Source: Streptomyces sp. CCM_MD2014
GTDB lineage: Bacteria > Actinomycetota > Actinomycetes > Streptomycetales > Streptomycetaceae
NCBI RefSeq assembly: GCF_000772045.1
Contig: NZ_CP009754.1
Span: 6,262,001 to 6,326,000 of the forward strand
Reading direction: 5' to 3'
DNA: 64,000 nt
The notes below the pieces were generated by a model. That model ran no database searches. It saw only the letters and a list, made by a program, of their open reading frames with translations, and was not told where the DNA came from. Positions 32,883-56,553 of the stretch are shown one piece after another; the first letter of the stretch is position 1, and each line of letters starts with the position of its first letter. A program made the position numbers and the translations under genes.

Positions 32883-34981
32883 TGGCGGACCGCGTGTCAC
32901 GCCCCGCCGGTGGCATACCGGCCGAGATCGGTCCCTACCGGCTGGAGAGGCTGCTGGGCGAGGGCGGGATGGGCCGCGTCTACCTCGGACGCACACCCGC
33001 CGGAAGTGCCGTCGCCGTCAAGGTCGTCCACCGTGCGTACGCAGCCGACCCGGAGTTCCGCAGGCGGTTCGCGCAGGAGGTCGCCGCGGCCCGGCGCGTG
33101 CAGGGTCTCTACACCGTGCCCGTCGTCGCGGCGGACCTGGACGCCGACGAGCCCTGGCTGGCCACGGCCTACGCCCCCGGGCCCTCACTCCAGCAGGCCG
33201 TCGGTGAACGGGGGTCGCTGTCCGCCGCCGAGGTGCTCGCGCTGACGGCCGGGGTCGCCGAGGCGCTGGAGACGATCCATGCCGCCGGAGTGATCCACCG
33301 CGACCTGAAACCCTCCAACATCGTCCTCACGGCCGACGGGCCCAAGGTCATCGACTTCGGCATCGCCCGCGCCGCGGAGGTCACCGCCCTGACCGCCACC
33401 GGCATGCGCGCCGGGACCCCGGCCTACATGGCGCCCGAGTACATCCGGGGGCAGGAGGTCACCGAGGCCGGTGACGTCTTCGCGCTCGGCCTCGTCGCCC
33501 ACTTCGCCGCCACCGGACGGCTCGCCTTCGGCGGCGGCGGCGACCACGGAGTGGCGTACCGGATCCTGGAGGCGGCGCCCGACCTCGACGGCTGCCCCGC
33601 GTCCGTGCGCGCCGTCGTGGCCCGCTGCCTGGAGAAGGACCCGGCGCGGCGGCCGGCGCCCGCCGAGGTCGTCCGGCTCTGCGGCCGGGCGGCGAACGGG
33701 GACTTCGACGACGGCCGCACCCCCACCGTCGTCTCCGCACCCCCGGCGACCGGCCCGGACGCGCCCACCGCCACCGCCCCGGCGCGCCCCCCGGCGCCGG
33801 ACGCCGCCCCCCGGACCCCGTCCGCACCGCCGTACGCCGCCCTGCTCGGCGTGGTCGGGGCGATCGCCCTGGTCGTCGTCCTGGTCGTGGTGTTGCTGCC
33901 CTCGTCGGAGGAGACCCCGGAGAACAAGCAGCCGTACCCGGTGGTCGCGGCCACCGACATCTTCGCCGAGGGGACCAGCGGCGTCGCGTTCAGCCCGGAC
34001 GGTGAGACGCTCGCCACCGGCGGCGAGGACGGGAAGGTGCGGCTGTGGAACGCCGCCACCCGCGAGCTGCGTGCCACGCTCACCGAGAAGAACTGGTCCG
34101 GGGACCCGAGCCGAGTAGTCGGCGTCACGTTCGGCGCCGACGGGAAGACCCTGGCCACGAGGACCGGCACCCACCTGGTCGGCGTCTGGGACGTGGCCCG
34201 CCGCCGGGAGGTCCGCCGCATCGAGGAGACGGCCTACTCCCTCGCCCTCAGCCCCGACGGCAAGCGGATCGCCCTGGGCGACAGCGCGGGTGCCAACCTG
34301 TGGGACCTCGGCGGCCGCAGTGAGGATCCGCGCGCCCACCTGTCGCAGAACCTGCGCGCGACGGACATGGCGTTCAGCCCCGACGGCAGGACGCTCGCCT
34401 CCGTCGGAGACTTCTCCGACCAGCGCCACCAAGCGGACAACGAGCCGGCCAAACTGTGGGACCTGACCCGGCTCGACCCGCGGCCCTACGGCCAGGGCGA
34501 CCCGCGCCACGACCTCGCCCTGGAGGACGTCACCTACGCCGTCGCCTTCAGCCCCGACGGCAAGACCCTCGCCACCGGCGGCCAGGACGGCGGCGTACGG
34601 CTGTGGGACGTGGCCACCGGCCGCCTGAAGGCCACCCTCACCCACCGCTTCGTCACCGAGGCCCGGGACCTGGCGTTCAGCCCGGACGGCAGGACGCTCG
34701 CCGTCACCGCCGACGGCCGGGTGCTCCTGTGGAACCTGGCGGACCGCAAGCCCGGCGCCATCCTGGCCGACGACGAGACCGGCTTCGGCGCCGACGTCCG
34801 CGAGCTGGCCTTCAGCCCGGACGGCCGGTTCCTCGCGGGCAGCACCGCGGGAGGGGGCGCCCCGGAGGAGACCCCCGCCCCGGGCACCGGCACCGATTCC
34901 GACGCGGTCGAGGACAGCGGCGTACGCCTGTGGAAGGTCCCGAAGGCCACCGGCACTACAGCACCGGCAGCGACTTCCTGA
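32882..34981 (+). CDS. Transmembrane Ser/Thr protein kinase with WD40 repeat sensor
   Basis: A 699-residue Hanks-type kinase. The Gly loop is LLGEGGMGRVYLG near residue 22, the catalytic loop HRDLKPSN near 140, DFG near 160, and MAPEYIRG is the APE segment. A Pro/Ala linker leads to one membrane helix (LLGVVGAIALVVVLVVVLL, about 322–340). Outside are about six WD40 repeats of the form AFSPDG.TLA.GG.DG.VRLW. ATG 32882 is preferred because of the TAATG coupling to the peptide. Its 3' end overlaps the original 3' end of glnA2 by 26 bp on the other strand. Confidence 0.92.
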   Translation: MADRVSRPAGGIPAEIGPYRLERLLGEGGMGRVYLGRTPAGSAVAVKVVHRAYAADPEFRRRFAQEVAAARRVQGLYTVPVVAADLDADEPWLATAYAPGPSLQQAVGERGSLSAAEVLALTAGVAEALETIHAAGVIHRDLKPSNIVLTADGPKVIDFGIARAAEVTALTATGMRAGTPAYMAPEYIRGQEVTEAGDVFALGLVAHFAATGRLAFGGGGDHGVAYRILEAAPDLDGCPASVRAVVARCLEKDPARRPAPAEVVRLCGRAANGDFDDGRTPTVVSAPPATGPDAPTATAPARPPAPDAAPRTPSAPPYAALLGVVGAIALVVVLVVVLLPSSEETPENKQPYPVVAATDIFAEGTSGVAFSPDGETLATGGEDGKVRLWNAATRELRATLTEKNWSGDPSRVVGVTFGADGKTLATRTGTHLVGVWDVARRREVRRIEETAYSLALSPDGKRIALGDSAGANLWDLGGRSEDPRAHLSQNLRATDMAFSPDGRTLASVGDFSDQRHQADNEPAKLWDLTRLDPRPYGQGDPRHDLALEDVTYAVAFSPDGKTLATGGQDGGVRLWDVATGRLKATLTHRFVTEARDLAFSPDGRTLAVTADGRVLLWNLADRKPGAILADDETGFGADVRELAFSPDGRFLAGSTAGGGAPEETPAPGTGTDSDAVEDSGVRLWKVPKATGTTAPAATS

Positions 34982-35043
34982 GCTCGAACGCGGTGACCTG
35001 GGAGCGGTACTCCTCCCACTCCTGGCGCTTGTTGCGGAGGAAG
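34956..35043 (-). pseudogene. glnA2: Displaced original 3' end of glnA2 (attL side)
   Basis: On the minus strand this reads as the last 28 codons of a glutamine synthetase, from FLRNKRQEWEEYRSQ to RKSLPVL and a TAG stop (34956–34958). It matches the present end of glnA2 (56629–56716) apart from 10 mismatches in 84 bp and three residue changes (R/K, Q/E, S/N). It has no upstream gene here. This is the old chromosomal 3' end, cut off from glnA2 when the element inserted; the element's own version now completes the gene. Confidence 0.92.
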
Positions 35044-35174: not shown

Positions 35175-35192
35175 TGGTTCACCCCGGCCCAG

Positions 35193-36410
35193 TTAACCTG
35201 CTTCGGCCTGCGGTTTCTCTCGGAGGTCTCGCTGTCGGGGGACGGCTACGGGAAACAGCGTCCGCTTCCCAGCCACATCACCGGACGTGAGCCTGTCCAC
35301 AGGCGTGCGGTAGGCGTATGAGATCACCGTGAGATCTTCGTCTTCCACGGCCCACGGGGAGGTGCAGTGGAGGATGCCACCGGAGGCGGTCGGCTCCACC
35401 CCAGTGCGGTCCAGTTTGATCGAGTGCACGACAACCAACGCGTTGTCCGGGTAGTACTTCCGCTGCTTCTCGACCTCGGCTCGGGTCAAGATCACTTCCA
35501 ACCCCGCAGAGGTCGTCCCCTTGACCTCCACGTGCAGTCGCTTCTCCCCCCTCGTGAGCAGGAGGTCAAAGGACTCCTTGGCGCCGACGTCCTTGACCGA
35601 CCAACCCTGAGCCTCGAAGTGCTCAGTGGCCATCCGGACGCTGTGGTGCTCTATCGCGCGGCGTTCGCTGGCGGTGAGCAGAAATCCCTGCCCCGGTCTA
35701 CGCGGTCGGGTGCCGCTACGGGTCCGACGGCCGGCGGTCTTCTCCGCACTCTGCTCAGCCTCCAGCACCTCCGGAGTCGGGTCCCCAGGGATGTAAGGGG
35801 CGAGGCGCTCGGCTTCATAGAGGGTGCCGAGTAGGCCTGTCATGAAGGCCAGGTCCTTCAGCAGAACCTCCCGCGAGGGCAGCTGCTCGCGCTCGTATGC
35901 GATGGCCACCACGTTCCCGGGGCCGTAGCCACTGCCAAGAGGGGTCCTGGCGTCCAGCTGAAGCGTTTCGTGCAGGTCCGGGCGCGCGGTCGTCGCCTTC
36001 GCCAGTAGTGGCCGCGCCCAGTCGACACGGGCACGAAGATCTTCGGCTCTGCGCGCCTTGAAGACGCCTCCCGTCCAGATGGTGGTCCCCTGATTCAACG
36101 ACAGGTAGACCCTCCGACCGGAGGCGCTGAACAGGTAGACCACGTACCACCCGGTGGTCGAGCTGGGTGACTGCTCCCGCCCGAAAACCCGAACCCAGGG
36201 AATCTCCGACTTGAGCCCCGTACCATCGCGGCCCTCGACTCCTAAGTTGTCGAGTGAAGTACCGAGCGCCGCTGACAGATCCCGTCCGTGCGCCCGAAGC
36301 AGATCTGGCAGCTGCTGCCGGACGACGACGCCTCGTTCCTGCATCTTTTCCGTGTTCGCTGCCGTCCAAGACGGCTGAAGATCAAGGACCTTGCCCAGGA
36401 GATCATTCAC
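35193..36410 (-). CDS. MrcB_N–NOV_C (DUF3883) protein, putative modification-dependent nuclease
   Basis: A 405-residue protein with two domains. Residues 1–160 look like MrcB_N/DUF3578 (DLLGKVLDLQPSWTAANTEKM… VRVFGREQSPSSTTGWYVVYLF), the family of the DNA-reading part of McrB. Residues about 275–375 match DUF3883/NOV_C, with FDLLLTRGEKRLHVEVKGT giving the D…ExK pattern of PD-(D/E)XK nucleases. There is no GTPase domain, unlike McrB. GTG 36410 starts the family match; an in-frame ATG exists at 36500. It diverges from the helicase–nuclease gene at 36586. A defence role is inferred. Confidence 0.75.
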   Translation of the reverse strand: MNDLLGKVLDLQPSWTAANTEKMQERGVVVRQQLPDLLRAHGRDLSAALGTSLDNLGVEGRDGTGLKSEIPWVRVFGREQSPSSTTGWYVVYLFSASGRRVYLSLNQGTTIWTGGVFKARRAEDLRARVDWARPLLAKATTARPDLHETLQLDARTPLGSGYGPGNVVAIAYEREQLPSREVLLKDLAFMTGLLGTLYEAERLAPYIPGDPTPEVLEAEQSAEKTAGRRTRSGTRPRRPGQGFLLTASERRAIEHHSVRMATEHFEAQGWSVKDVGAKESFDLLLTRGEKRLHVEVKGTTSAGLEVILTRAEVEKQRKYYPDNALVVVHSIKLDRTGVEPTASGGILHCTSPWAVEDEDLTVISYAYRTPVDRLTSGDVAGKRTLFPVAVPRQRDLREKPQAEAG

Positions 36411-36585
36411 GGCCGCAGCGTAGCCCCGAGTACTGACAGCGCTCGGGGCGCCTATAGCGGAGTAGGGCCACCGACGGCGGGGTTTCGCGTCATTACACAC
36501 GGAATCTCCCCATAACTGGGTCGATTGTCAGACCCTCCTGGCAGGGTGTTCACCTGTAACAACCCGTTCGAACAATGGAGTTCCT
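36411..36585. promoter_or_regulatory. Divergent promoter region of the putative defence pair
   Basis: The 175 bp between the two divergent genes include the 7-bp stem CCCCGAG/CTCGGGG (36424–36430, 36442–36448) and a small ACCCT/AGGGT repeat (36532–36547). Both promoters must lie here. No convincing −35/−10 pair is seen. Confidence 0.4.
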
Positions 36586-39549
36586 GTGGACGTGAAGCAG
36601 GCGCTGAGCGCTTGGCCACTGACCGCCGATCAGCTCCCGGCGGCCATCGCAACCGACGCCGAGATCCTCGCGCTCGCCGGCGCGGGGTCCGGCAAGTCGC
36701 GAACCCTCGCTGCCCGAGTAGCCTTCCTCGTGGCCTCGGGGGCGCTCCCGGAGTCGCTGGTCGCCTTCACGTTCTCCGACAAGGCTGCCGAGACGATCAA
36801 GGAGCGGGTGGCTCAGGCTCTTACGGTGTGTGGGCTGGACCCACTCCTGGTGGGTGGGATGTACATCGGCACCATCCACGCCTGGTGCCGTCGCGTCCTC
36901 GGCGAAATGGATGCCAAGTACCGGCAGTTCGATGTGCTCGACGCCATGCAGCTCCAGATGTACCTGATGTCTCGGTATCCCAAGCTCAACCTGCATCCAC
37001 TGCGTGCCCAACACAGCACGAAGGCAGGCAAGCCGCGCGGGTACTTCGAGACGCTCAACCAGGTCAGTCGTGCCTGGACGATGATGAACGACGAACTACT
37101 CGATCCTGCACAGATCGCTGCCGAAGATCCAGTGCTGGGCGACGCTCTGGAGCGTCTTCGCGCGCAGATGGAGCAGGACAACTTCATCGACTTCTCACTG
37201 ATGCAGCGCCTCGTGGTCGAGGCGCTTGAGGGCAAGGAACCCGGGGCAGTGCAGGCACTTGCTCCTCTCCAGCACGTGCTGGTGGATGAGTACCAGGACG
37301 TGAACGTCGTACAGGAGCGTCTGATCGAGCTGATGCACCGCGAGTCCGACACCCTCTTCGTGGTGGGCGACGACGATCAGGCGATCTACGGATGGCGCGG
37401 CGCGGACATCACGAACATTTTGGAATTCGACCAGCGTTATCCGAACGCGGCCGTGCACAAGCTGCTCACCAACTTCCGGTCCACTTCGGCCATCGTCGAG
37501 GCCGCCAGCACGTTCGCCGGGCAGGAGTTGGGCGCCACGCGGCTGCAGAAACAACTGACCGCCGCTGTGGACCGTGACCCCCGTGAGTTCGGCGTCCTGC
37601 GGTTCCCCACGCGGATGGACGAGGCTGCTTTCGTCGGCGACCGGATCAAGGAACTGCTCGGCACCCGCTACGAGGAAGCGGACGGGACCGTGCGCGGTCT
37701 GACTCCCGCCGACTTCGCCATCCTGATGCGGTCGACGAACATGTCCGAAGGCGATGAAACCAAGCGCCACACCGCGTTCATCCGAGCCCTGGAAACGCGG
37801 GGCATCGAGTACGCCCTCAATGCCGGCGGCCAGCTCTTCGAACGAGCCCAGCCCGCAGCCGTGCTCAGCGCTTTTCAGCTGCTGCGCGGCGAAAACCCGA
37901 ACCGTACGCAAGTGGACGGACTGTTCAACTCCGAGCTGAGCGTAGCCTTCCCCTGTGCCGACCTGGGCCGTGTCAGGCACGTCTTCGCCGATTGGGGTCG
38001 CCGCATCCACGCTCCCGTCGCACCAGGCGTTCCACGTCAGCGCCTCTTCCCGCAGCAGCTGCTCCATGACCTGTTGGAAGCCCTCGGCGTCGCCGCCAGC
38101 GGGTTCGGCGACGGCGTCATGGCCGACCTGGGTACCTTCAGCAAGATCCTTACGGACTTCGAGTCGGTGTACGTCTCGGTCGACGGCAAGGCACGGTACG
38201 GGGAGCTTCTGAACTTCCTGCAGAACGTGGCAGGCGAGGGATATGAGACCGACAACCAGATGATGGCCCGCCCTGATGCAGTGACGGTCTCCACGATCCA
38301 CAAGGCAAAGGGGCTGGAGTTCCCGGTCGTCTTCGTGGTGGACGTCGAAGCCGGCCGTTTCCCAGGCAGGAAGCGCTCGTACGACGGGTGGATCCCTGCC
38401 CCGTTGGTGCAGCGGGCCCTGAACAACGGCAGTTACCAGACGGATCGGCCGGACCAGGCCCGGCTGTTCTACACGGCCATCACCCGCGCCGAGCGCTTTC
38501 TGTACGTCACCGGATCCGAATGGCTACCCGGAGGTGCAAAGCCGACCAAGGTGTCCCCCTACGCAGCCATGCTGACGCATCCCGAAGTCCGTCGCGACCT
38601 TCTCGACCCGTCCGCCCCGCCCAAGGTGATGCCCCCGCCCGCCGTTCCGTCCAGGCGTGGCGACGAGTCCGTGCTGCCCACCACGTACTCCCAGATCCAC
38701 ACCTACATGCGTTGCCCCCACGCCTACAAGCTCAGCGTGGTGCACGGGTTCGCCCCGCCGATCCCGGAGCTCTTCGGGTTCGGACGCGCGGTCCACGCGG
38801 CAGTGGGCAAGGTGCACCAGCTCTATAAAGACCAAGCACCCAGCCCGGTCGAGGCGCGGAACGTGGCCGAGGACCTCTTTCACCTCAAGCACGTCGCCCC
38901 GAGCCAGGACCCGGTCAACCGGCCAGGCGCGTACGAGCGTGCGAAGCAGAGCTCCGCGAACATCGTGGCCAGCTACGTCGATAAGTACGCGAAGGACTTC
39001 GAGAGCAAGCGGCAGGTCGAGCTTCCTTTCGAGGTCCCGGTGAACCGCGCGGTCATTTCCGGAGCCATCGATCTGCTGCTCAGCTACGACGACTCGGACC
39101 AGATCCGCGACGCATCGGTGATCGACTTCAAGACCATGGAAGGGGGCCCCGAACCGATCAACAATCCCGATCTCCACTGGGAGAACCTCTCCCTGCAGGT
39201 CCAGCTCTACGCACGTGGCGCCGTACAGGTGTACGGGATGAACGCGCGGACTGGTGCCGTACACCTCCTCAAGGATGGCCAGCGGGTGTCGGTTCCGGTC
39301 GACACCGACGCCGTCGACGCCGCGGTCGCCAATGTGGACTGGGCGGTCGACCGAATCATGGAAGGCGACTTCCCGCAGCGCGCCTCGGGAAAGAAGTGCG
39401 GTGGCTGCGACTTCGCCCAGATCTGCCCGAAGAAGGTGCAGCAGTTCGCGACGTCACAGGAGCCTCCGAAGCTTCACCTTCCGGCTAGTAACGGCGGCAA
39501 GGAGTTCCTGATGGTGTCCGCCTTCTCTCAGCTCGGGCCCGACCAGTAG
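36586..39549 (+). CDS. UvrD/PcrA-like helicase fused to a Fe-S RecB-type nuclease
   Basis: A 987-residue superfamily 1A helicase. Motif I is AGAGSGKS (about residue 31), II VLVDEYQD, III VGDDDQAIYGWRG, IV NFRS, V STIHKAKGLEFPVVF and VI YTAITRAERFLYV. The C-terminal 250 residues form an AddB/Cas4-like PD-(D/E)XK domain: YMRCPHAYKL, GAIDLLL, VIDFKT, Q.Q.Y, and CGGCDFAQIC, whose Cys with the earlier one would hold a 4Fe-4S cluster. Such fusions degrade DNA ends. GTG 36586 follows GGAG. The divergent MrcB_N–NOV_C gene suggests a two-gene restriction system. Confidence 0.88.
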   Translation: MDVKQALSAWPLTADQLPAAIATDAEILALAGAGSGKSRTLAARVAFLVASGALPESLVAFTFSDKAAETIKERVAQALTVCGLDPLLVGGMYIGTIHAWCRRVLGEMDAKYRQFDVLDAMQLQMYLMSRYPKLNLHPLRAQHSTKAGKPRGYFETLNQVSRAWTMMNDELLDPAQIAAEDPVLGDALERLRAQMEQDNFIDFSLMQRLVVEALEGKEPGAVQALAPLQHVLVDEYQDVNVVQERLIELMHRESDTLFVVGDDDQAIYGWRGADITNILEFDQRYPNAAVHKLLTNFRSTSAIVEAASTFAGQELGATRLQKQLTAAVDRDPREFGVLRFPTRMDEAAFVGDRIKELLGTRYEEADGTVRGLTPADFAILMRSTNMSEGDETKRHTAFIRALETRGIEYALNAGGQLFERAQPAAVLSAFQLLRGENPNRTQVDGLFNSELSVAFPCADLGRVRHVFADWGRRIHAPVAPGVPRQRLFPQQLLHDLLEALGVAASGFGDGVMADLGTFSKILTDFESVYVSVDGKARYGELLNFLQNVAGEGYETDNQMMARPDAVTVSTIHKAKGLEFPVVFVVDVEAGRFPGRKRSYDGWIPAPLVQRALNNGSYQTDRPDQARLFYTAITRAERFLYVTGSEWLPGGAKPTKVSPYAAMLTHPEVRRDLLDPSAPPKVMPPPAVPSRRGDESVLPTTYSQIHTYMRCPHAYKLSVVHGFAPPIPELFGFGRAVHAAVGKVHQLYKDQAPSPVEARNVAEDLFHLKHVAPSQDPVNRPGAYERAKQSSANIVASYVDKYAKDFESKRQVELPFEVPVNRAVISGAIDLLLSYDDSDQIRDASVIDFKTMEGGPEPINNPDLHWENLSLQVQLYARGAVQVYGMNARTGAVHLLKDGQRVSVPVDTDAVDAAVANVDWAVDRIMEGDFPQRASGKKCGGCDFAQICPKKVQQFATSQEPPKLHLPASNGGKEFLMVSAFSQLGPDQ

Positions 39550-40644: not shown

Positions 40645-40693
40645 AATCTATCAGGCGCGCGCGAGGTAATTACGCGGCCAGATCTTCGATCTG

Positions 40694-41898: not shown

Positions 41899-42055
41899 CC
41901 GATTCCACCAAACCCATTACCGTCATCACCGTGAGTGAGGGCGTGAGAGCCACATGCGCCGTCGTTCCGAGGACGGGACATCCCCGGCCCCCACCAATCG
42001 CATCGCAAGACGTTACGCTGGTTCGCGCCACTTCAGGATGGAGAGTGCTCCGCGG

Positions 42056-42844
42056 ATGGGACCGAAGACGACCAAGGTCTACGAGACGCTTCGCGCGCGG
42101 CTCACCGCCGGCGAGTACGCCGCTGGCGACAAGTTCCCCTCAGAGCGCACGCTGGTCGAAGAACTGGGCATCGGCCGGACGGCTCTTCGGCAAGTGCTCG
42201 CCCGTCTCGTCGCTGAGGGCGCCCTGGAGGTACGCGGACGGAGCTCGTACCGAGTGCCAGGCGCCGTGAGCGTCGAGCGGCCGGAAGGGCTGGAGCCGTG
42301 GCGCATCCACGGCGAGCGCGACCTATACGACAACCGATGGGTCAAGCTGCAACTCTGGGACGTGCAGCCGCCTGGCATGGAGCCGTTCGAGCATCACGTG
42401 GTAAGGCTGCACCACGTGGCGGTAACCGCTGTCCTGGACGATCAGGACCGCGTGCTCATGATTTGGCGGTACCGATTTGTCCCCCAGCAGTTCGGCTGGG
42501 AGCTCCCTGGCGGCATCGTTGACGAGGGTGAGGACCCGGCGGAGACGGCGATGCGCGAAGTCGTCGAGGAAACCGGCTGGCGGCCGAGGTCTCTAGAGCA
42601 CGTTGTGACCTACCAGCCCATGGTGGGCATGGTCGACTCGCCACACGAGATTTTCGTGGGCAACGGGGCCGAGAAGGTCGGTTCACCGACGGACCTAGAA
42701 GAGGCGGGGCACATCGAGTGGGTACCCCTCGCAGACATTCCGGGGCTCATGGCCCGCGGTGAGCTGATGGGGTCGGGCACGCTCGTCGCACTGCTGCACA
42801 TCCTGGCCAACCGGCGTGCGCAGGGAGTCACAGCCGCGCACTGA
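42056..42844 (+). CDS. GntR winged helix fused to Nudix hydrolase (KorSA/Pif-like regulator)
   Basis: A 262-residue fusion. Residues 1–75 are a GntR-type winged helix (KVYETLRARLTAGEYAAGDKFPSERTLVEELGIGRTALRQVL). From about 110 a Nudix domain follows, with a perfect Nudix box from GIVDEGED to REVVEETGW (Gx5Ex7REUxEExGU). pSAM2-type elements encode a GntR repressor (KorSA) and a Nudix immunity factor (Pif) as separate genes, so this looks like both in one chain. It would repress transfer and replication genes. ATG 42056 is preferred (GGAGAG upstream); earlier in-frame starts exist. Confidence 0.85.
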   Translation: MGPKTTKVYETLRARLTAGEYAAGDKFPSERTLVEELGIGRTALRQVLARLVAEGALEVRGRSSYRVPGAVSVERPEGLEPWRIHGERDLYDNRWVKLQLWDVQPPGMEPFEHHVVRLHHVAVTAVLDDQDRVLMIWRYRFVPQQFGWELPGGIVDEGEDPAETAMREVVEETGWRPRSLEHVVTYQPMVGMVDSPHEIFVGNGAEKVGSPTDLEEAGHIEWVPLADIPGLMARGELMGSGTLVALLHILANRRAQGVTAAH

Positions 42845-43958
42845 GCATGTCGACACGACGGCGCTGCCGAACCGATCCGGTGCGGCTCGCCAACAGTCGG
42901 GCCTGCCTCAGATGGGTGTGCGCGTCGTCGTACTCGGCTCGGGCGAGATGCGCATGCGCCAGGTCGGTGTGCAGTCCGGCCCTGGCCCGTACGAATGTCG
43001 CGTCCATGCCGTCCATCGCCTCATACAGACTGGTGACTGCGTCACCGTCACCAAGGAGCGCAAGCACGTTGCCGTGCCACCGGGCAAGGTGGGCACCGTT
43101 CAGGAAGATGCTCAGCATGTCGGGGTCCCGGTCCTCCGGGCCCGGCGGAATGCTGGCCAGTGCGGCATCGAGCGCACGGCGGCTGTCGTCCGGCATGTCG
43201 GCGTGCGCGCACATCTCCGCTTCCGCGGCGTACAGCCATGCATGGAGCCGAGCGGAGCCGGCTTGGCCGACGGTGCGCCGCGCTTCGCGGACCAGGTCGA
43301 CGCCGAGCGCCGGCCGCCCAGCCTCGCAGAGGACGTACGCCTGTTCTGCCATGGCGTGGGCGAGGTACATCGGAGCCTCAGCATCGCGCGCCGCCTGCTT
43401 GGCCTGTTCGTAGTGACGCCACGCCCGTTCGACCGCCCCCGAGTCGATTGCCTGCCAGGCTGCGAGCGTCGACGCACCCGCGAGCGCGAGCGCCACCGGT
43501 CGACGCGCGGTCGGCAGCACGGTGAAGTTGAGCGCCTCTTCGAGGGCTGCCAGATGACCTGTCATCTGGTCGATGAGATGAGCGGCGCCCCTCTGCCGGT
43601 CCATGGTGCGGAGCAACTCAGTTTGGTCGTTGAACGCCTTCACCATGGACTCACTGACGCTGTCGGCGGCATCGATCCGGCTGAGTAGCTCGTCGTAGCC
43701 GTCTGCCGTCGGCGCCACGGGCGTCGGCGCGGCGTCCCGCAGCTCCCCATCGGTCACGCCGAGGAGTTGCCGCAGGATGGCCGCGTACCGGTCCGAGATG
43801 GTGCGCTTGCCGTTCTCCCATTCGGACACGTACACCCGCAAACTCGCTGTCGACGCGACGTCCGTGACGCTCCGTCGGGCGTACTGCTCAATTTCACGAA
43901 CCAGTCGCTCCTGAGACCAGCCGCGCGCCGTCCGCGCACTTCGAAGTCCTGCGCTCAC
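42828..43958 (-). CDS. XRE-family regulator with TPR-like C-terminal region
   Basis: A 376-residue protein. The Cro/CI helix-turn-helix is at residues 1–70 (LRSARTARGWSQERLVREIEQ… LRVYVSEWENGKRTISDRYAAILRQLLGV). The remainder is helical repeats rich in Ala (AWRHYEQAKQAARDAEAPMYLAHAMAEQAYVL), as in streptomycete sensors that bind peptides or proteins. Its stop overlaps the convergent GntR–Nudix stop by 17 bp. GTG 43958 is chosen; TTG 43988 is an alternative. It diverges from the transfer genes across the region with paired palindromes. Confidence 0.85.
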   Translation of the reverse strand: MSAGLRSARTARGWSQERLVREIEQYARRSVTDVASTASLRVYVSEWENGKRTISDRYAAILRQLLGVTDGELRDAAPTPVAPTADGYDELLSRIDAADSVSESMVKAFNDQTELLRTMDRQRGAAHLIDQMTGHLAALEEALNFTVLPTARRPVALALAGASTLAAWQAIDSGAVERAWRHYEQAKQAARDAEAPMYLAHAMAEQAYVLCEAGRPALGVDLVREARRTVGQAGSARLHAWLYAAEAEMCAHADMPDDSRRALDAALASIPPGPEDRDPDMLSIFLNGAHLARWHGNVLALLGDGDAVTSLYEAMDGMDATFVRARAGLHTDLAHAHLARAEYDDAHTHLRQARLLASRTGSVRQRRRVDMLSARL

Positions 43959-44144
43959 AGGCCACCGTCCGGCGATAGATGCCCTCAACTGACCATCCCA
44001 GCATGCCGCACGTCGCCGCAGGTCAACAGGGGTTAACAGGCCGGAAGTTAAGTCCTGTTGGCTACCGGTGACCCTGCCTCAGACAGTCTCCTGAAGGGGC
44101 ACCGCGGCGAGGTGAACGCCCTCAAATCGGCAAACCACCTTGAC

Positions 44145-48723: not shown

Positions 48724-50841
48724 ATGAGCAGCACCGCCACCGCCAAGCAGAACGCGAGCAGTGGCCCGGTGCTGGACTGGGCGGCCGGTCACGGACCCGT
48801 GACCGGCGCCCTGTCCGCCACCACCGGAGCCTTCGCCGTCGCCACCACCGGCGCCGCCACCCACATGCCGCCCGGCTGGGCCCTCGCCGTCGGCGCAGCC
48901 GGCGCCCTTGGCCACACCATCGTCGGCCTGCGCGTCCGCAACGCCGGCCGCACCCTGGCCACCCGCGCCGCCTCCTGGCTCGTCGGCGCCGGATGGACCA
49001 CCTGGGCCATGACCCACGGCCCCCTGACCTGGGCCGCCCTCGGCTCGCTCGCCACGATGGGGGTCGGAATCGGCGCCGCCGCCCGCTCGGCTGCATTGTT
49101 CGAGGAGGCCCGCGAGGAGGAGGCCATCGCCGCGGAGCAGCGGCAGATCGCCGCCGAGCTGTCCGCCGACCGGCGCGCGATCGCCGCGGAGTGGGTCGAC
49201 CGCATTCAGCGGGTCTGCTCGATTACCGTGCGCGTGGTCGGTGTCGAGCAGTGGGCCACCGGCGCCGGATACTCCATCGACGCCGAACTCCCGCCCGGCG
49301 GCGCCACCTGGAACAAGATCGCCGCCGAGTCGCCGCGACTGTCCGCGGACGCCCGGCTGCCGCACGGCTGCACCGCCACCGCCTCCCCCGGCATCCACCA
49401 GGGCCGCGTCATCATCGACGTCACCACGGTCAACGTGCTGGAGCAGGAGCGCACCTACCCCGCCGACTACGGGCCCCTGTCGGTCCACACCGGCATCCCG
49501 TGGGGGTATCGGACCAACGCCGAACAGATCCTCGCCTACCTGCGCGAGCAGTGCGCCCTGATCGTCGGCCCCACCGGTTCGGGCAAGACCAACATGGTCC
49601 ACTCGATCCTCGCCGGGTTCGCCCGCGCCGACGACATGCTGACCTGGGTCATCGACCTCAACGCCGGCAGCGCAGGGCTGCCCTGGGTGCTGCCCGCCCT
49701 CAACGGCGAGATCAGCAGCCCGGACGGCAAGCCGGTCCGGCCCGGCATCGACTGGCTCGCCGGCACCTATGACGAAGCCATGACCATGCTGGACGTGGCC
49801 GTGCGCGTGGCCAAGCAGCGCAAGATGGGCTATCAGGACGTTCTCGCCCGCGCGAACACCGATCTGCTGCCGATCAGCCCGCGGATTCCGCAGATCATGC
49901 TGGTCATCGATGAGGGCGCGGAGATCCTGGCCAGCCCGGACCGGCACGTGCGCAAGCTCGGGGAGAAGATCCTGGAAGTGATCCGGATCGCCCGAGCCAT
50001 GGGCATCCGCACCGTGCTCACCGCCCTCGGAGCGACCGGCAGTGTGCTCAGCAACCTCATGATCCGCCGGGAAGCCAAGGTCCGCGTCGCCCTCACCGGC
50101 GGCGAAAAGGAGGGCATGGACCTCTCCAAGATGTTCCCCGGCTCCCGCGGACTGCGCGTCGATCAGGCCCCGCACAAGGGCGCCGGGTTCATGGGCACCC
50201 CCGAGTCCCCGGCCGCCCTGTTCAAGGCATGGCGGATCCTCCCGAACCAGATCCGGGAGATCATCGCCGCCACCTCCGAGCGACACCCCACCCTGGACGC
50301 CGTGTCCGCCCGGGCGGCCGGGCCCGCCTACGCCCGCCGCTGGGATGCGGACCGCACCGCTTGGATGCGCGACCAAGCGTCCAGCGACGGCGCTGGCACC
50401 ACCGGCACGACGGGGGAGGGGCTGAAGCTGTCCGCCCTCAGCAGTCAGGAGCAGGCTCAGGTCTCGCCGGAAGACGAGATGCTGCGCAAGTTCCGAGCGC
50501 AGATCGACGCCCAGTTCGGCACCGCACCCGAGCCGCAAGCCCCCGCGGGAAGTGACGGGCCGCCGGCCACGGGCGGGTTGAACCTGTCCGCTCTGCGGGG
50601 CGAGCAGGACAGCCCCGCACAGCAGGCCGCGCTGGCGCTGCTGCTCGCCGCCGGCGGGGACGGCACCGGAGCGTCCGCAATCGCCCGCGCGCTCTCCGCC
50701 GAGCACGGCACGTCCCGTCAGACGGTCGTGGGCTGGCTGCGGGACTGGGTCAAGGACGGCACCGCCGTCCGCGTCGGAGAGGGCACCAAAGCCCGCTACG
50801 TCCACCGCCAGCACGCCCCCGAACAGCCACCCGAGAGCTGA
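48724..50841 (+). CDS. traB: TraB, FtsK/SpoIIIE-type DNA translocase for conjugation
   Basis: A 705-residue motor that moves double-stranded DNA between mycelia. It has three N-terminal membrane helices (about 35–125), then the FtsK ATPase with Walker A GPTGSGKT near residue 282 and Walker B IMLVIDEGAE near 395. A linker ends in a winged helix (ASAIARALSAEHGTSRQTVVGWLRDWV, about 650–690), the part that reads the clt repeats in related TraB proteins. GACAAG repeats start three bases after its stop. Confidence 0.93.
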   Translation: MSSTATAKQNASSGPVLDWAAGHGPVTGALSATTGAFAVATTGAATHMPPGWALAVGAAGALGHTIVGLRVRNAGRTLATRAASWLVGAGWTTWAMTHGPLTWAALGSLATMGVGIGAAARSAALFEEAREEEAIAAEQRQIAAELSADRRAIAAEWVDRIQRVCSITVRVVGVEQWATGAGYSIDAELPPGGATWNKIAAESPRLSADARLPHGCTATASPGIHQGRVIIDVTTVNVLEQERTYPADYGPLSVHTGIPWGYRTNAEQILAYLREQCALIVGPTGSGKTNMVHSILAGFARADDMLTWVIDLNAGSAGLPWVLPALNGEISSPDGKPVRPGIDWLAGTYDEAMTMLDVAVRVAKQRKMGYQDVLARANTDLLPISPRIPQIMLVIDEGAEILASPDRHVRKLGEKILEVIRIARAMGIRTVLTALGATGSVLSNLMIRREAKVRVALTGGEKEGMDLSKMFPGSRGLRVDQAPHKGAGFMGTPESPAALFKAWRILPNQIREIIAATSERHPTLDAVSARAAGPAYARRWDADRTAWMRDQASSDGAGTTGTTGEGLKLSALSSQEQAQVSPEDEMLRKFRAQIDAQFGTAPEPQAPAGSDGPPATGGLNLSALRGEQDSPAQQAALALLLAAGGDGTGASAIARALSAEHGTSRQTVVGWLRDWVKDGTAVRVGEGTKARYVHRQHAPEQPPES

Positions 50842-51477: not shown

Positions 51478-52206
51478 ATGACGCAACCCGCCACCATCCG
51501 GCGAGTGCGCGACCCCCGGCCGCGCCTGCTGGATCTCTTCTGCTGCGCCGGCGGCGCCGCCGTGGGCTACGCCCGAGCCGGTTTCGCCGTGGACGGCTGC
51601 GACATCGCCTACCGACCCAGCTACCCCTTCCCCCACCACCAGGGCGACGCCCTCGCCTACCTCACCCACCTGATCACCACCGGTGAGATCCGCCGGTACG
51701 CGTTCGTCCACGCCTCCCCGCCCTGCCAGCACGGGTGCGCGCTCACGGTCGGCACGAACGCCTCGCAGGGCTGGGGACGCGCGCACGTCGACCTCGTGGC
51801 CCCCACGCGTGAGCTGCTGGACGCCACCGGCCTGCCCTACGTGATCGAGCAGCCCAACGGCCGCGCGAAAATCCGCAAAGACCTCACCCTGTGCGGCGAG
51901 ATGTTCGGTCTCGGAGTCATCCGACACCGCAACTTCGAGGCCGGCGGCTGGACCATCGAGCAGCCCGCGCACCGCCCGCACCGGGGCCGCGTACGCGGGT
52001 ACCGGCACGGCCGCTTCTACGACGGCCCGTACGTGGCCGCCTACGGCAACGGCGGCGGCAAGCCCAGCATCCCCGAGCTGCAAGCCGCGATGGGCATCGA
52101 CTGGACCGACGTCCGCGAGGAACTGACCGAAGCCATCCCCCCGGCTTACACCGAGTGGATCGGCGCCGCGTTCCTCGCCACGGCCACGCTGGAGGTGGCG
52201 ACATGA
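51478..52206 (+). CDS. C5-cytosine DNA methyltransferase-like protein
   Basis: A 242-residue protein with motif I LLDLFCCAGGAAVGYARAGF (SAM binding), motif IV SPPCQHG (catalytic Cys) and a motif VI-like VIEQPNGR. It is shorter than typical C5 methylases and lacks an obvious target-recognition domain, a form common in actinobacterial phages and AICEs. It could protect the element from restriction. GTGGAGG lies 9 bases before ATG 51478. It overlaps the PrimPol start by four bases (ATGA), so it is coupled to the replication genes. Confidence 0.85.
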   Translation: MTQPATIRRVRDPRPRLLDLFCCAGGAAVGYARAGFAVDGCDIAYRPSYPFPHHQGDALAYLTHLITTGEIRRYAFVHASPPCQHGCALTVGTNASQGWGRAHVDLVAPTRELLDATGLPYVIEQPNGRAKIRKDLTLCGEMFGLGVIRHRNFEAGGWTIEQPAHRPHRGRVRGYRHGRFYDGPYVAAYGNGGGKPSIPELQAAMGIDWTDVREELTEAIPPAYTEWIGAAFLATATLEVAT

Positions 52207-53045
52207 GCAAGGCGCCCTACCCCCAGCACACCGCGCTGAGCCTCGCCGCGTCCGGCGTGCCCGTGCTGCCCCTGCGCCGAGGCAAGGTCCCCTTCGGCAA
52301 CTGCCGTACCTGCGCGGACAACGCGTGCGGTGGCCGGCCGAACATGAAGACCCCGGGCCCGTGCCGCTGCCCCGGCGTCTGCCACGCCTGGGCCGCCGCC
52401 ACCACCGACCCGGCCGTCATCGCCTCGCCCCCGTGGGCCGGGGCGTGGCGACAGGCGGTGTGCGTCGGCTACCACCCCGGCGGCGCCGGCCTGACCGTCG
52501 TCGACCTGGACGACGCGAACGCCATCGCCTGGGCCCGCACCGCCCTGCCCCGCACGCGGACCGTGCCGACGACACGCGGGGAGCACTGGATCTACCGGGG
52601 CGCCATGCGGTCCGTGAACGCCGTGCGCCCTGGCGTGGACATCAAGTCGACCATGGCCTACGCCCGCTACCTCGGCCCCGGCACCGGCACCATGGCCGAC
52701 CTGCCGGAAACCGTGCAAGCGCTGGCCGTCAAGGAGCCCTCCCCGGTCCGGCCGGCGACCGTCGCCGTGCCCACCGGCGCCAGGGGTGGAGAGTGCCCGC
52801 ACCGCACGCCCGCCTACCTGGAACGCGGCATCGCCATGGCAGAGCAGCGCATCACCGAAGCGTCCAGCGCGGTCCACGCGACCGTGTACCGCACGTTCCT
52901 CGCCGTGCTGTCCACGCACGGCCGGTGCGGCTGCCTCACCGACACCCACGTCGCCCGCCTGTTCACCGCCGCGCAGGCCAAGGGCGAAACCGCTCGGCAC
53001 TGCGTGGACGCGTGGACCAACGCCCGCACCACGTTGGGACTGTGA
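52203..53045 (+). CDS. PrimPol (bifunctional DNA primase/polymerase) of the replication module
   Basis: A 280-residue protein with the PrimPol N-terminal domain: HTALSLAASGVPVLPLRRGKVPFGNCRTC (residues 9–37), a zinc-like Cys cluster, then VVDLDDANAI (the D-x-D-type metal site, about residue 100), TTRGEHWIY and VDIKSTMAYARYLGPGT. Together with the next gene it forms the RepPP type of AICE replication, which copies the excised circle. The C-terminal 80 residues are helical, without helicase motifs. The ATG overlaps the methylase stop. Confidence 0.88.
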   Translation: MSKAPYPQHTALSLAASGVPVLPLRRGKVPFGNCRTCADNACGGRPNMKTPGPCRCPGVCHAWAAATTDPAVIASPPWAGAWRQAVCVGYHPGGAGLTVVDLDDANAIAWARTALPRTRTVPTTRGEHWIYRGAMRSVNAVRPGVDIKSTMAYARYLGPGTGTMADLPETVQALAVKEPSPVRPATVAVPTGARGGECPHRTPAYLERGIAMAEQRITEASSAVHATVYRTFLAVLSTHGRCGCLTDTHVARLFTAAQAKGETARHCVDAWTNARTTLGL

Positions 53046-53047
53046 CC

Positions 53048-54526
53048 ATGTCCGACGACGAGAAGACCCCCGCCCGCGAGATCATCACCGACTACGCGCA
53101 AGCGCACTTCCGGTACTTCCGCACCGCCGACGGCACCGTGTACGCGCAGCGCAACGGCCACCCCGTGGCCCGCCCGATCCGCTCCCAGGGCACCACGGGA
53201 AGCCACCGGCAGGAACTCATGGTCGGACTGTTCAAGGACGGCATCGGCGTGTTCAACGGCACCGCAATGAAAGAGGCACTCGACCTGATCGAAGCGTTGG
53301 CACTGACCGAAGACGTCCAACCCGTCCACATCCGCGTCGCCCCCGGATTCGATGGGGCCACATGGCTGGACTTGGGACGCAGCGACGGGCAGTCCGTGCG
53401 CATACACCCCACCGGATGGGACATCCGCACCCCTGACCCGCAGGAAGTCTGCTGGCGGCGCACCCAGCTCACGGGGGAGCTGCCCCTGCCGGTCAAGGAC
53501 ACCGACGGCAAGGGCATCGACCTGCTGATGCGGCTGTGCAACTTCGCCACCGCGGAGACCGAGTGCCTGGCCATCGCGTGGCTCATCGGCTGCCTGGGCC
53601 CGAACGTGCCCGTCCCGGCACCGTTCCTCACCGGCCCGCAGGGCGCCGGCAAGTCCACCGGCGGGCGCATGCTCGTGCGGATCATCGAAGGCATGAGCGG
53701 CGACCTGCGCCGCGCCCCGAAGGACGAGGAAAACCTGACCACGGCCGTGGCGGCCGGTTGGGTCACCGCCCTGGACAACCTCTCCCACATGACCCCGGAC
53801 CTCTCCGACGCCATGTGCCGCATCGTCACCGGCGCCGAGGACGTCAAGCGCGCCCTGTTCACCGACGGGGACGTCGTCCGCATCGGCTACCGCCGCCCCC
53901 TGCTCCTGACCGGCATCGACGTCGGCGTCATCCGCCCCGACCTCGCCGAGCGGCTCCTGCCGCTCCGCCTGGAACGTCCCCGGGTCCGGCGCACCGAGGC
54001 GGAACTGTGGTCCGACTTCGCGGAAGTGCTGCCCGTCATCCTCGGCTCGCTCCTGGACCTCACCGTGCAGGTGCGTGCGGCTGAGGCGGACATCCCGACT
54101 GACCTGCGCATGGCCGACTTCGCGCACCTGTGCGCGCAGCTCGACGCGGCCACCGGCCTGGGAGCGCTCGCCGCCTACCGGGCCAGCCTGGACGACCTCA
54201 ACGACGACGTCATCGAGGGCGACCTGTTGGCGCAGACGGTGCTCAAGCACGCCGCCGGCATCGACCCGGGCACCGAGCAGCGGATGACGTCCGCCGAATG
54301 GCTGCACTGCCTCACCGGTCTCTACACGGGCGAGGACTTCCGTCCCCTGCCCAAAGGGTGGCCGACCACCGGCAAGGTGCTCTCAGACCGCCTCAAACGC
54401 CTTCAGCCCACCCTCGCGGCCCGGGGCGTCCTCATCGACTGGGGGCGCACCAAGACATCCCGCTACATCGAGATCGCACGGCCGGACGCCGCAGCGCCTC
54501 CGTCCGAGCAGGAAGCGGCCTTCTGA
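53048..54526 (+). CDS. AAA/SF3-like replicative helicase of the AICE
   Basis: A 492-residue protein that starts 2 bp after the PrimPol stop. Walker A is FLTGPQGAGKSTGG near residue 200, and the Walker B-like WVTALDNLSHM follows near 240 with a sensor region (RPLLLTGIDVGV). The N-terminal 150 residues are like the domain before the ATPase in plasmid/phage P4-like primases, and the C-terminal segment looks like a winged helix (GKVLSDRLKRLQPTLAARG). It would open the origin and unwind DNA for the PrimPol. Confidence 0.85.
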   Translation: MSDDEKTPAREIITDYAQAHFRYFRTADGTVYAQRNGHPVARPIRSQGTTGSHRQELMVGLFKDGIGVFNGTAMKEALDLIEALALTEDVQPVHIRVAPGFDGATWLDLGRSDGQSVRIHPTGWDIRTPDPQEVCWRRTQLTGELPLPVKDTDGKGIDLLMRLCNFATAETECLAIAWLIGCLGPNVPVPAPFLTGPQGAGKSTGGRMLVRIIEGMSGDLRRAPKDEENLTTAVAAGWVTALDNLSHMTPDLSDAMCRIVTGAEDVKRALFTDGDVVRIGYRRPLLLTGIDVGVIRPDLAERLLPLRLERPRVRRTEAELWSDFAEVLPVILGSLLDLTVQVRAAEADIPTDLRMADFAHLCAQLDAATGLGALAAYRASLDDLNDDVIEGDLLAQTVLKHAAGIDPGTEQRMTSAEWLHCLTGLYTGEDFRPLPKGWPTTGKVLSDRLKRLQPTLAARGVLIDWGRTKTSRYIEIARPDAAAPPSEQEAAF

Positions 54527-55258: not shown

Positions 55259-55284
55259 ATATGTCGAGAGAGGATCGCCGCCGC

Positions 55285-56553
55285 ATGGCAGGCCACATCC
55301 AAGACCGCTGGTACAAGACGGAAACCGACTCCACCGGAAAGCCCCGCCGCGTACGGACTGAGCGCTACGGCGCCGGCCTGCGCTACCGAGCTCGCTACAT
55401 CGGCCCGGACGGCACCGAGAAGAGCAAGTCGTTCCCCGACGGACAGAAGCGACTGGCAGACCAGTGGCTTGCCCACATCGAGGCAGACATGTCCCGGGGG
55501 CAGTACGTGGACCCTGCTGCCAGCCGAGTGACGTTCCGGCAGTACGCCGAGAAGTGGCTGAGCACGCAGACCACCGACATGACCACCCGGGAGTCGGTGG
55601 AGTCCGCGATCCGCGGCCACGCGATTCCCTACCTGGGGCCGCGACCGCTCGGCTCGTTCAAGCCGGAACACATCCGGGATTGGCTCAGCGAATTGGAACG
55701 GGCCGTCCCGGCGTCGTCGTATCGGCGAGTGATCTACAACAACGTATCGACGGTCCTCAACGCGGCCGTCGACGATGGCCACCTGTCGAAGAACCCCTGC
55801 CACGCGCAATCGGTGCGCCCGCCTGCTGCGGCAAGCGGTCGCGTTGTGCCGTGGAGCGCAGAGCGCGTCTTCGCCGTGCGGGCGGCACTGCCGGAACGCT
55901 ACCGCGCGACAGTCGACCTCGGAGGCGGATGCGGGCTCCGACAAGGGGAGATCTTCGGGTTACCAGTCGATGAGGTCGGCTTCGACTCCGGATGGCTGCA
56001 CATCGTGAATCAGGTGAAGGTGACGAAAGAGGGTCTTGTGTTCGCCCCGCCGAAGCGGAACAAGATCCGCGATGTTCCCTTGCCGGATCGCGTGGCCCAC
56101 ATCCTCAAACAGCATATGGAGGCGTTTCCCCCGGTAGAGATCACCCTACCCTGGCTTCGGGTGGATGGTCCGTCAGTCACGAAGCGGCTGCTGTTCACCC
56201 GTCTCGACGGCGCGGGTGCGGTTCGGCGTACCGACTTCAACGACCGGGTATGGAAGCCTGCTCTCGTCGCCGCTGGGGTGATCCCGCAGCCAAGGCCCGG
56301 CGAGCGCCACCAGGCCGCCCGCGAACACGGCATGCACGCGCTCAGGCACTTCTACGCCTCGGTCCTGCTGGACGCCGGCGAGAACATCAAGGCACTGAGT
56401 CACTACCTCGGACACAACGATCCGGGGTTCACGCTCCGGGTCTATACGCACCTCATGCCGAGCAGCGACGCACGGGCCCGGAAGGCGGTGGACGGCCTGT
56501 ACGAGGGCGCCGATCCGGCGCCGGACGGCCCAGAGACGGCCCAGGGCCGGTGA
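55285..56553 (+). CDS. int: Tyrosine recombinase integrase
   Basis: A 422-residue phage-type integrase. An N-terminal arm-binding segment (MAGHIQDRWYKTETD…) is followed by the SAM-like core-binding domain (about 75–170). The catalytic domain has Arg in GGCGLRQGEIFGL (about 219), HALRHFYAS (H-x-x-R, about 350), the second His in LGHNDPG and nucleophile Tyr in TLRVYTHLMP (about 385). ATG 55285 with GAGAGAGG upstream is preferred; ATG 55261 lies directly behind the hairpin with no ribosome site. It ends about 150 bp from the right core. Confidence 0.92.
   Translation: MAGHIQDRWYKTETDSTGKPRRVRTERYGAGLRYRARYIGPDGTEKSKSFPDGQKRLADQWLAHIEADMSRGQYVDPAASRVTFRQYAEKWLSTQTTDMTTRESVESAIRGHAIPYLGPRPLGSFKPEHIRDWLSELERAVPASSYRRVIYNNVSTVLNAAVDDGHLSKNPCHAQSVRPPAAASGRVVPWSAERVFAVRAALPERYRATVDLGGGCGLRQGEIFGLPVDEVGFDSGWLHIVNQVKVTKEGLVFAPPKRNKIRDVPLPDRVAHILKQHMEAFPPVEITLPWLRVDGPSVTKRLLFTRLDGAGAVRRTDFNDRVWKPALVAAGVIPQPRPGERHQAAREHGMHALRHFYASVLLDAGENIKALSHYLGHNDPGFTLRVYTHLMPSSDARARKAVDGLYEGADPAPDGPETAQGR
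56524..56550 (+). repeat. Putative integrase arm site, right
   Basis: GACGGCCCAGAGACGGCCCA followed by GGGCCGG is the counterpart of 35148–35174. It lies in the last codons of int, about 150 bp from the right core. A shared CTGACCTGCG word (56618–56627 and 35090–35099) is a second candidate pair. Confidence 0.5.

What the first reader, a model, noticed from the sequence alone, without database searches (positions are those of the whole stretch)
35193..39549. Candidate undescribed defence pair: MrcB_N–NOV_C protein opposite a helicase with Fe-S nuclease domain
An McrB-like modification-reader domain is joined directly to a PD-(D/E)XK-like NOV_C domain, with no GTPase. Divergent from it, a UvrD-type helicase carries a RecB/Cas4-like nuclease. 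They share a promoter region, are cargo of a mobile element and have GC different from the backbone. One protein could recognise and nick modified foreign DNA and the other could degrade it from the break. I know of no named system with exactly this pair.
Basis: inference. Interest (0 to 1): 0.75.

Follow-up and report, generated by a model that had tools for sequence, protein, structure and literature searches.

The report
Type IV-like restriction enzyme beside helicase-nuclease
A mobile element in a soil bacterium carries a predicted enzyme that cuts DNA with chemically marked cytosines, next to a DNA-unwinding, DNA-degrading helper of a known kind; both look like defence genes, but they are usually found apart and so are probably not a fixed two-part system.

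Summary
Window 35193-36500 (-) joins an McrB-type modified-base reader (MrcB_N) to a NOV_C/DUF3883 nuclease without a GTPase. Window 36586-39549 (+) is a UvrD helicase fused to a Cas4-like PD-(D/E)XK nuclease with Fe-S-type cysteines. Both are cargo of a 21.8-kb conjugative element (AICE) in a glutamine synthetase gene.

The claimed undescribed pair fails its own test: of 42 loci with relatives of the first protein, the helicase is in the fetched flanks of 2, one almost identical, one with the genes tail-to-tail. Trees suggest two separate assemblies.

MrcB_N-NOV_C is best read as a modification-dependent (type IV) endonuclease. Its reader fold matches E. coli McrB (Z 10.9); methyl-contact positions (Y64/L68) and the nuclease residues are invariant in 37 of 37 sequences. 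Against this, some relatives, mostly in prophages, lie beside methyltransferases.

The helicase fits the UvrD-Cas4 family, described in 2017 (PMC5704561) as ancillary to type III and Dcm-linked systems; I recovered both contexts. New are a type IV-like partner, apparently acquired twice, and a reader-nuclease architecture I did not find described. Activity and defence are untested.

The parts
34957..35043 (.). attL: imperfect copy of the 3' end of the glutamine synthetase gene
   Evidence: 87-nt repeat, 87% identical to 56630-56716; includes an exact 23-mer
35193..36500 (-). MrcB_N-NOV_C protein, 435 aa (GTG at 36410 also possible): predicted modification-dependent endonuclease
   Evidence: ORF, Pfam, alignments, AlphaFold2 model and PDB comparison. 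Residue numbers in this report are those of the alignments, counted from codon 22 of this ORF; add 21 for the ORF
35832..36374 (-). MrcB_N (DUF3578/ADAM) modified-cytosine reader domain; W81, Y98, L102 invariant in 37 of 37
   Evidence: PF12102 3.9e-33
35421..35648 (-). NOV_C/DUF3883 core with PD-(D/E)XK residues D291, E304, K306 (E263 at its N-terminal edge), invariant in 37 of 37
   Evidence: PF13020 4.9e-8; Hjc/DpnI-type fold
36501..36585 (.). divergent intergenic region
   Evidence: no sigma-70-type match
36586..39549 (+). UvrD-Cas4-type helicase-nuclease, 987 aa
36622..37443 (+). UvrD/Rep helicase N-terminal domain with Walker A K37 and DEYQD box
   Evidence: PF00580
38683..39429 (+). PD-(D/E)XK nuclease with Cas4-like cysteines
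   Evidence: PF12705
39964..41898 (+). two further cargo genes (226 and 386 aa), low GC, family unknown
   Evidence: no Pfam, PADLOC or PHROG hit; in NCBIfam only a chance-level 0.22 for the first
41954..43988 (.). element regulators: GntR-NUDIX (+) and HTH protein (-)
48724..50841 (+). FtsK/SpoIIIE-like protein, presumed conjugal translocase
   Evidence: phrog_31069 E 9.2e-97
52155..54526 (+). Prim-Pol protein and a putative replication protein
   Evidence: PF09250 8.5e-9 for 52155-53045; the second gene has no hit, its label is recalled
55261..56553 (+). site-specific integrase
   Evidence: PF00589 4.5e-13
56630..56716 (.). attR, inside the 3' end of the glutamine synthetase gene (56629-58005, -)
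   Evidence: glutamine synthetase PF00120 2e-122

Best explanation
An AICE carries two adjacent but separable restriction genes. (a) MrcB_N-NOV_C is a single-chain, GTP-independent, modification-dependent endonuclease. Its McrB-type domain flips and reads a modified cytosine (predicted 5mC, 5hmC or 4mC, not glucosylated), and its C-terminal PD-(D/E)XK domain cuts nearby. It spares the host by ignoring the host's own marks or their sequence contexts. (b) The UvrD-Cas4 helicase-nuclease is an ancillary factor that loads on broken or nicked DNA left by whichever restriction enzyme it travels with, then unwinds and degrades it. Shown by computation: domains, fold of protein 1, invariant catalytic and pocket residues, mobile context, recurrent link of the helicase family to restriction genes. 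Inferred: modification dependence, cleavage, the hand-over to the helicase, phage or plasmid defence.
For: MrcB_N matches the E. coli McrB N-domain (3ssc/3ssd, Z 10.9, 3.2 A, 137-138 residues); NOV_C matches Hjc (Z 10.5) and, lower, DpnI (Z 8.2). E. coli Y64 and L68, which contact the methyl group of flipped 5mC (review passage), align with Y98 and L102, invariant 37/37; the non-conserved Y41 position is variable here too. E263, D291, E304, K306 invariant 37/37. Two relatives carry the same reader on a McrB-type AAA_5 protein (L087, L090). Of 42 genome loci, 37 have no match within 4 kb to eight methyltransferase queries and NaeI; three of the five that do carry a NaeI-type restriction gene as well. 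Helicase: 11 of 13 loci, the window included, lie near restriction genes. BPTD_3080 restriction family over cut-off in 3 of 246 Streptomyces, all 3 among the 7 with the helicase family (hypergeometric 1.4e-5).
Against: No activity is shown for either protein. In 4 of 5 prophage-type contigs with the nearly full-length protein a methyltransferase-like gene lies within 0.8 kb. The element has a small methyltransferase-like ORF, and the host genome five ORFs with C5-methyltransferase matches, which a broad 5mC reader would have to tolerate. Only two pairings support any helicase-type IV link, and shared AICE cargo status could explain them. The helicase model is poor (pLDDT 61.5) and was not used.
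Confidence: 0.57

Rival explanations
1. A dedicated two-gene defence system: MrcB_N-NOV_C nicks modified DNA and the divergent helicase-nuclease degrades it, each needing the other.
For: The two are adjacent in the window, in S. ficellus (L051, 99% identical, hence not independent) and in G004/NBC_00572. Co-occurrence of close helicase orthologues with MrcB_N-NOV_C is 2 of 3 where 7 of 246 genomes carry the latter (hypergeometric 0.002). An 85-bp divergent gap in the window.
Against: Helicase not found in the flanks of 40 of 42 loci (eight of the 42 are under 20 kb). Orientation differs between the two pairings. The window's nearest MrcB_N-NOV_C relatives L052 and L053 lack it, and L055 is sister to L054 which lacks it; the helicase tree groups the G004 copy with G340, not with the window (89/98). 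Both genes are AICE cargo, so co-occurrence is not independent.
Confidence: 0.12
2. MrcB_N-NOV_C is a modification-blocked, type II-like enzyme protected by a methyltransferase in the element or genome.
For: Methyltransferase-like genes lie within 0.8 kb in 4 of 5 prophage-type contigs (L101 C5-type; L102, L103, L104 by ORFs picked by eye or similar to them) and within 4 kb in 5 of 42 genome loci. The window's element has a methyltransferase-like ORF at 51436-52206. An McrBC-like enzyme working with a Dcm-type methyltransferase is known (PMC8989522).
Against: In the genome loci L053, L054 and L059 the methyltransferase comes with its own NaeI-type gene. The neighbouring methyltransferases are of different kinds (C5, N6/MT-A70-like), not one cognate type. 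In the PcaRCI case the DNA-binding domain is unrelated to that of McrB, whereas here the methyl-contact positions are kept.
Confidence: 0.17
3. The pair has no joint function: AICE cargo assembled near the attachment site, kept briefly and then lost.
For: Copies decay: interrupted in G019, truncated in G165 and G222. AICE cargo is often pseudogenised (PMC9513070, passages).
Against: Catalytic residues invariant across 37 sequences; recurrent restriction neighbours of the helicase family.
Confidence: 0.12

Closest known systems
UvrD-Cas4-like fusion family (Hudaiberdiev et al. 2017, author name recalled; PMC5704561)
   Same: UvrD SF1 helicase fused to a pfam12705 Cas4-like nuclease; contexts with type III Mod+Res and with Dcm-type methyltransferase, both recovered here
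   Different: A reader-nuclease of type IV make-up as neighbour is not mentioned in the passages read
EcoKMcrBC (type IV)
   Same: MrcB_N/DUF3578 reader domain with the same fold and the same residues at the methyl-contact positions
   Different: No AAA+ GTPase and no McrC; a different PD-(D/E)XK domain on the same chain
Single-chain modification-dependent enzymes: MspJI, ScoMcrA, TagI, DpnI
   Same: A reader domain joined directly to a nuclease domain; no NTPase (partly recalled)
   Different: Other readers (SRA-like in MspJI and TagI, sulfur-binding domain in ScoMcrA; DpnI's winged helix is recalled) and, in ScoMcrA and TagI, HNH nucleases
Gabija (GajA-GajB)
   Same: Nuclease beside a UvrD-like helicase; GajB profiles match the helicase part
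   Different: GajA is an OLD/TOPRIM nuclease and GajB has no Cas4-like nuclease (both recalled)

Membership tests
McrB-type modified-cytosine reader (PF12102) | Profile match and McrB-N fold | tested here: met
   E 3.9e-33; Z 10.9 to 3ssc/3ssd
McrB-type modified-cytosine reader (PF12102) | Residues contacting the methyl group (E. coli Y64, L68) | tested here: met
   Y98, L102 invariant in 37 of 37, on a weak local alignment
McrBC (GTP-dependent type IV) | AAA+ GTPase domain and McrC partner | tested here: not met
   No AAA domain in protein 1; no McrC among the six proteins of 35193-43988 scanned
PD-(D/E)XK nuclease | Conserved acidic/lysine active site | tested here: met
   E263, D291, E304, K306 in 37 of 37
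Type IV restriction enzyme | Cleaves modified and spares unmodified DNA | not testable with these tools
   needs biochemistry
Type IV restriction enzyme | No cognate methyltransferase at the locus | tested here: inconclusive
   No hit in 34901-51435 of the window, but a C5-like ORF 15 kb away in the same element; 5 of 42 genome loci have a hit within 4 kb, 4 of 5 prophage-type contigs within 0.8 kb
UvrD-Cas4 fusion family | UvrD helicase plus pfam12705 Cas4-like nuclease with four conserved cysteines | tested here: met
   the NCBIfam Cas4 model is matched below its cut-off
UvrD-Cas4 fusion family | Monophyly with the published proteins | not tested
   their sequences were not fetched; the type III and C5-methyltransferase contexts were reproduced
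Gabija | GajA OLD-family nuclease partner | tested here: not met
   none of the other three cargo proteins scanned matches a GajA model
AICE | Integrase, FtsK-like transfer protein and flanking direct repeats | tested here: met

The most novel reading that the evidence does not exclude
UvrD-Cas4 is a general finishing factor for restriction that does not depend on the class of enzyme: it also serves a GTPase-free type IV architecture (DUF3578-DUF3883), and was recruited to it at least twice, once head-to-head and once tail-to-tail.
Probability: 0.33. Interest if true: 0.6.

Novelty: new variant of a known kind. Interest (0 to 1): 0.42.

Why it matters
One helicase-nuclease family that changes restriction partners makes the question 'what happens to DNA after the first cut?' directly testable.

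Tried and rejected
Fixed pair: rejected.

Gabija-like pair: GajB models match only the helicase part and no GajA was found.

Type II-like enzyme with a methyltransferase: kept as a rival. For that reason the best explanation went from 0.62 to 0.57, this rival from 0.13 to 0.17, the other odds by 0.02 or less.

Start codon: I first took 36437 as the start and cut the protein there for alignments and for the model; the sequence shows GTC there, not a start. The 414-aa form is a truncation by 21 residues that leaves both Pfam domains whole.

PDB search by sequence with the MrcB_N-NOV_C alignment found no usable relative (best E 0.37); the fold comparison did. In one search a family that is not listed is not excluded.

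The helicase AlphaFold2 model was too poor to search.

Viral contigs: no relative of the helicase confirmed among 24 stretches; 8 loci for the MrcB_N-NOV_C alignment, five nearly full length and three over the NOV_C part. Plasmids: no helicase match at 1e-60, no near-identical DNA for 34900-42000, 21 records with a match to part of protein 1, none covering 80%. Phages: 99 records match the helicase, all under 60% identity; the 15 listed stop by residue 674, before the nuclease.

Literature: searches (25 of 68 papers listed; 15 of 15 listed) showed no title or abstract on an MrcB_N-NOV_C protein; I opened passages of four of these papers (PMC3874153, PMC11090510, PMC7641849, PMC3710099), not the rest. 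Neither DUF3578 nor DUF3883 occurs in the 2025 review PMC12707154. BPTD_3080 had no occurrence in the 12 of 132 papers listed. Only the open PMC subset was searched.

Rows dropped before counts: alignment A4 holds the window, L033, L034 and 34 of the 42 loci. Left out: L061 and L070 (broken in two), L068 (not called), L087 and L090 (McrB-type AAA proteins), L088 and L092 (fragments), L089 (336 aa, under my 340 cut); and from the genus search L031 (over my length cut), L035, L036, L037. The tree drops seven further distant rows (L080, L081, L083-L086, L091). Alignment A5 held the methyltransferase of L109 in place of its helicase; it was redone as A6 and only A6 is used. Helicase searches used strict limits (E 1e-60 to 1e-150), so weaker relatives are not counted. 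Gene lists in the loci come from my own rough gene caller.
Full report
WHAT IS THERE. The two ORFs exist as described. The minus-strand protein has an MrcB_N domain (PF12102, E 3.9e-33) and a NOV_C domain (PF13020, 4.9e-8) and no AAA/GTPase domain. The plus-strand protein has UvrD helicase domains, a PDDEXK_1 nuclease and a Cas4 match just over cut-off, and an NCBIfam Cas4 match of 6.1e-12 that stays under its cut-off. The divergent gap is then 85 bp. A sigma-70 scan found no promoter there, which says little in Streptomyces. Residue numbers below are those of the alignments; add 21 for the 435-aa ORF.

THE ELEMENT. An 87-nt imperfect repeat (87% identical) flanks the region at 34957-35043 and 56630-56716. 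The right copy is the 3' end of a glutamine synthetase gene (Pfam 2e-122). Between them lie an integrase, a Prim-Pol protein, an FtsK-like protein (phrog_31069), regulators and DUF6284. This is an AICE-type element of about 21.8 kb (the name AICE is recalled for this gene set), with the pair at its left end. GC drops to 53-67% over the cargo against 69-80% upstream. A sequence 83-91% identical to these att copies lies about 0.26 kb upstream of the helicase start in another genome, G340 (L096).

In 246 Streptomyces genomes, 35 have some match and 7 (the window's included) a strong match, E 1.7e-67 or better, to the protein or a large part of it. In GTDB genomes 42 loci matched, in Actinomycetota and some Alphaproteobacteria; two of these (L087, L090) are McrB-type and two are fragments. 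All 8 Streptomycetaceae loci of that search with a complete gene (L051-L057, L059) carry genes like those of the window's element nearby; of the 34 others one, L071, had a single such match. In nine Lentzea loci the gene has conserved neighbours. Five IMG/VR contigs encode it nearly full length. An AlphaFold2 model from 37 sequences (pLDDT 82.4) gives two confident domains. The first matches the DNA-binding domain of E. coli McrB (Z 10.9), the second Holliday-junction resolvase Hjc (Z 10.5), SPARDA nucleases (10.5) and DpnI (8.2). Two conserved proteins (2a8e, 3mqz) also match the first domain at Z 10.8 and 10.2, so the fold alone does not prove base reading.

POCKET AND ACTIVE SITE. A review passage states that E. 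[quoted passage not shown] A profile alignment puts Y64 on Y98, L68 on L102, W49 on W81 and Y41 on T73 (weak by itself, probability 13.6%, E 0.0021). Y98, L102 and W81 are invariant in 37 of 37; position 73 holds seven different residues. E263, D291, E304 and K306 are invariant in 37 of 37.

IS IT SOLITARY? In 42 genome loci, tblastn with eight methyltransferases from these loci, a NaeI gene and the element's small methyltransferase-like protein found a hit within 4 kb in 5 (L053, L054, L059, L086, L087). In L053, L054 and L059, and in L031 from the genus search, a C5-methyltransferase and a NaeI-type gene travel together. L086 has an N6-type match, and L087 is McrB-type. In four of five nearly full-length prophage-type contigs a methyltransferase-like gene lies within 0.8 kb: C5-type in L101, adenine-type ORFs picked by eye in L102 and L103, and one similar to that of L102 in L104. 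Prophages often carry methyltransferases (recalled), but this is the main evidence against my reading. The search is no exhaustive census. I still read the enzyme as modification-dependent, because most genome loci show no partner and the methyl-contact positions are kept. The host has five ORFs with C5-methyltransferase matches, which predicts a narrow sequence context, another mark, or silencing of the kind reported for PcaRCII (PMC8989522, abstract and one section).

THE HELICASE. Walker A lysine, DEYQD, nuclease residues and four cysteines are conserved in all 11 full-length sequences examined, the window's included; a twelfth is cut by a contig end. Close orthologues (73-85%) occur in G004 and G012 and G340, and a 99.7% one in S. 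ficellus. Relatives of 27-33% occur in 4 of 246 Streptomyces genomes and 6 of 345 genomes of the class (one shared). Neighbours: MrcB_N-NOV_C in the window/S. ficellus and in G004; a C5-methyltransferase, a Z1 protein like MzaC and DUF4420 in G012 (L097; the NCBIfam MzaC match is under its cut-off); a C5-methyltransferase and a protein like BbrUII/HgiDII restriction enzymes in G340 (L096; NCBIfam 3.2e-75 but under cut-off, PADLOC REase_II 2.2e-38); type III-like restriction and methyltransferase genes in G148, G066, G223, G806, G853 and G888, where the G888 genes and one of the two in G223, G806 and G853 were judged from similarity in my gene lists, not by HMM; type III-like genes 1.7 kb away, a HerA-like gene (under cut-off) and a D12 methyltransferase in G671 (L121); an operon with a protein kinase in G124; no restriction gene recognised in G757, only an MZB-domain helicase about 6 kb away. 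That is 11 of 13 loci near restriction genes, 10 of 12 without the window; G853 and G888 are near copies. As a control, the BPTD_3080 restriction family passes its cut-off in 3 of 246 Streptomyces genomes, all three among the 7 with the helicase family; 9 more match it below cut-off and none of these has the helicase at 1e-60 (hypergeometric 1.4e-5).

ARE THEY A PAIR? The helicase is in the flanks of 2 of 42 loci (2 of 38 without the McrB-type loci and the fragments; eight loci are under 20 kb). In the MrcB_N-NOV_C tree the window groups with L052 and L053, and L055 with L054, none of these three having the helicase (these forks starred). In the helicase tree the G004 copy groups with G340 (89/98, not starred); the window's copy is closest to G012 by identity (85%), which carries other systems. 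The arrangement is head-to-head in the window and tail-to-tail in G004. Two separate assemblies are the simplest reading. One gain with several losses and an inversion is not excluded.

WHAT IS KNOWN. PMC5704561 (2017; passages) describes the UvrD-Cas4 fusion as monophyletic, found mostly with type III Mod and Res and otherwise with Dcm (and Vsr), and proposes an ancillary role in several defence systems. The helicase here fits that family; I did not test monophyly with their sequences. DUF3883 was called a novel REase domain in 2013 (PMC3710099, passage). AICE cargo with restriction genes and frequent pseudogenes is reported (PMC9513070, passages). I found no description of the DUF3578-DUF3883 architecture in the listings; papers that I did not open, or outside the open library, may have it.

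VERDICT. Real and probably a restriction locus, but modular. The mechanism is inferred.

Noticed in passing
window 39964-40644 and 40738-41898: Two low-GC cargo genes (226 and 386 aa) without any convincing family match; matched elsewhere only in S. ficellus L051 among the 43 loci searched.
   Followed up: partly
window 51436-52206: Small protein with C5-methyltransferase-like motifs (LLDLFCCAGGAA, PPCQ) in the element core, no Pfam match.
   Followed up: partly
L031, L053, L054, L059: A NaeI-type restriction gene with a C5-methyltransferase recurs near MrcB_N-NOV_C, upstream in one locus and downstream in three, in AICE-type loci.
   Followed up: yes
L101, L102, L103, L104: Prophage-type contigs with MrcB_N-NOV_C and a methyltransferase-like gene of varying kind within 0.8 kb.
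   Followed up: partly
L035:9312-12699, L037:9910-10242, L036:9845-10405: Decayed copies of MrcB_N-NOV_C: one interrupted by a 475-aa ORF (transposase by recall), the others truncated.
   Followed up: partly
L055:9924-9953: A 25-30 nt remnant of the glutamine synthetase att site lies about 50 nt upstream of the MrcB_N-NOV_C match, on the other side of the gene than in the window; hints at cargo shuffling at att sites.
   Followed up: no
L108, L109, L111, L118, L119, L120: A three-gene unit of BPTD_3080/type III-like restriction gene, N6/N4 methyltransferase and UvrD-Cas4 helicase-nuclease in two families of the class.
   Followed up: partly
L110:917-7799: UvrD-Cas4 relative beside an operon with a protein kinase (PD-T4-6-like) and a 1030-aa protein without any family match.
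   Followed up: no
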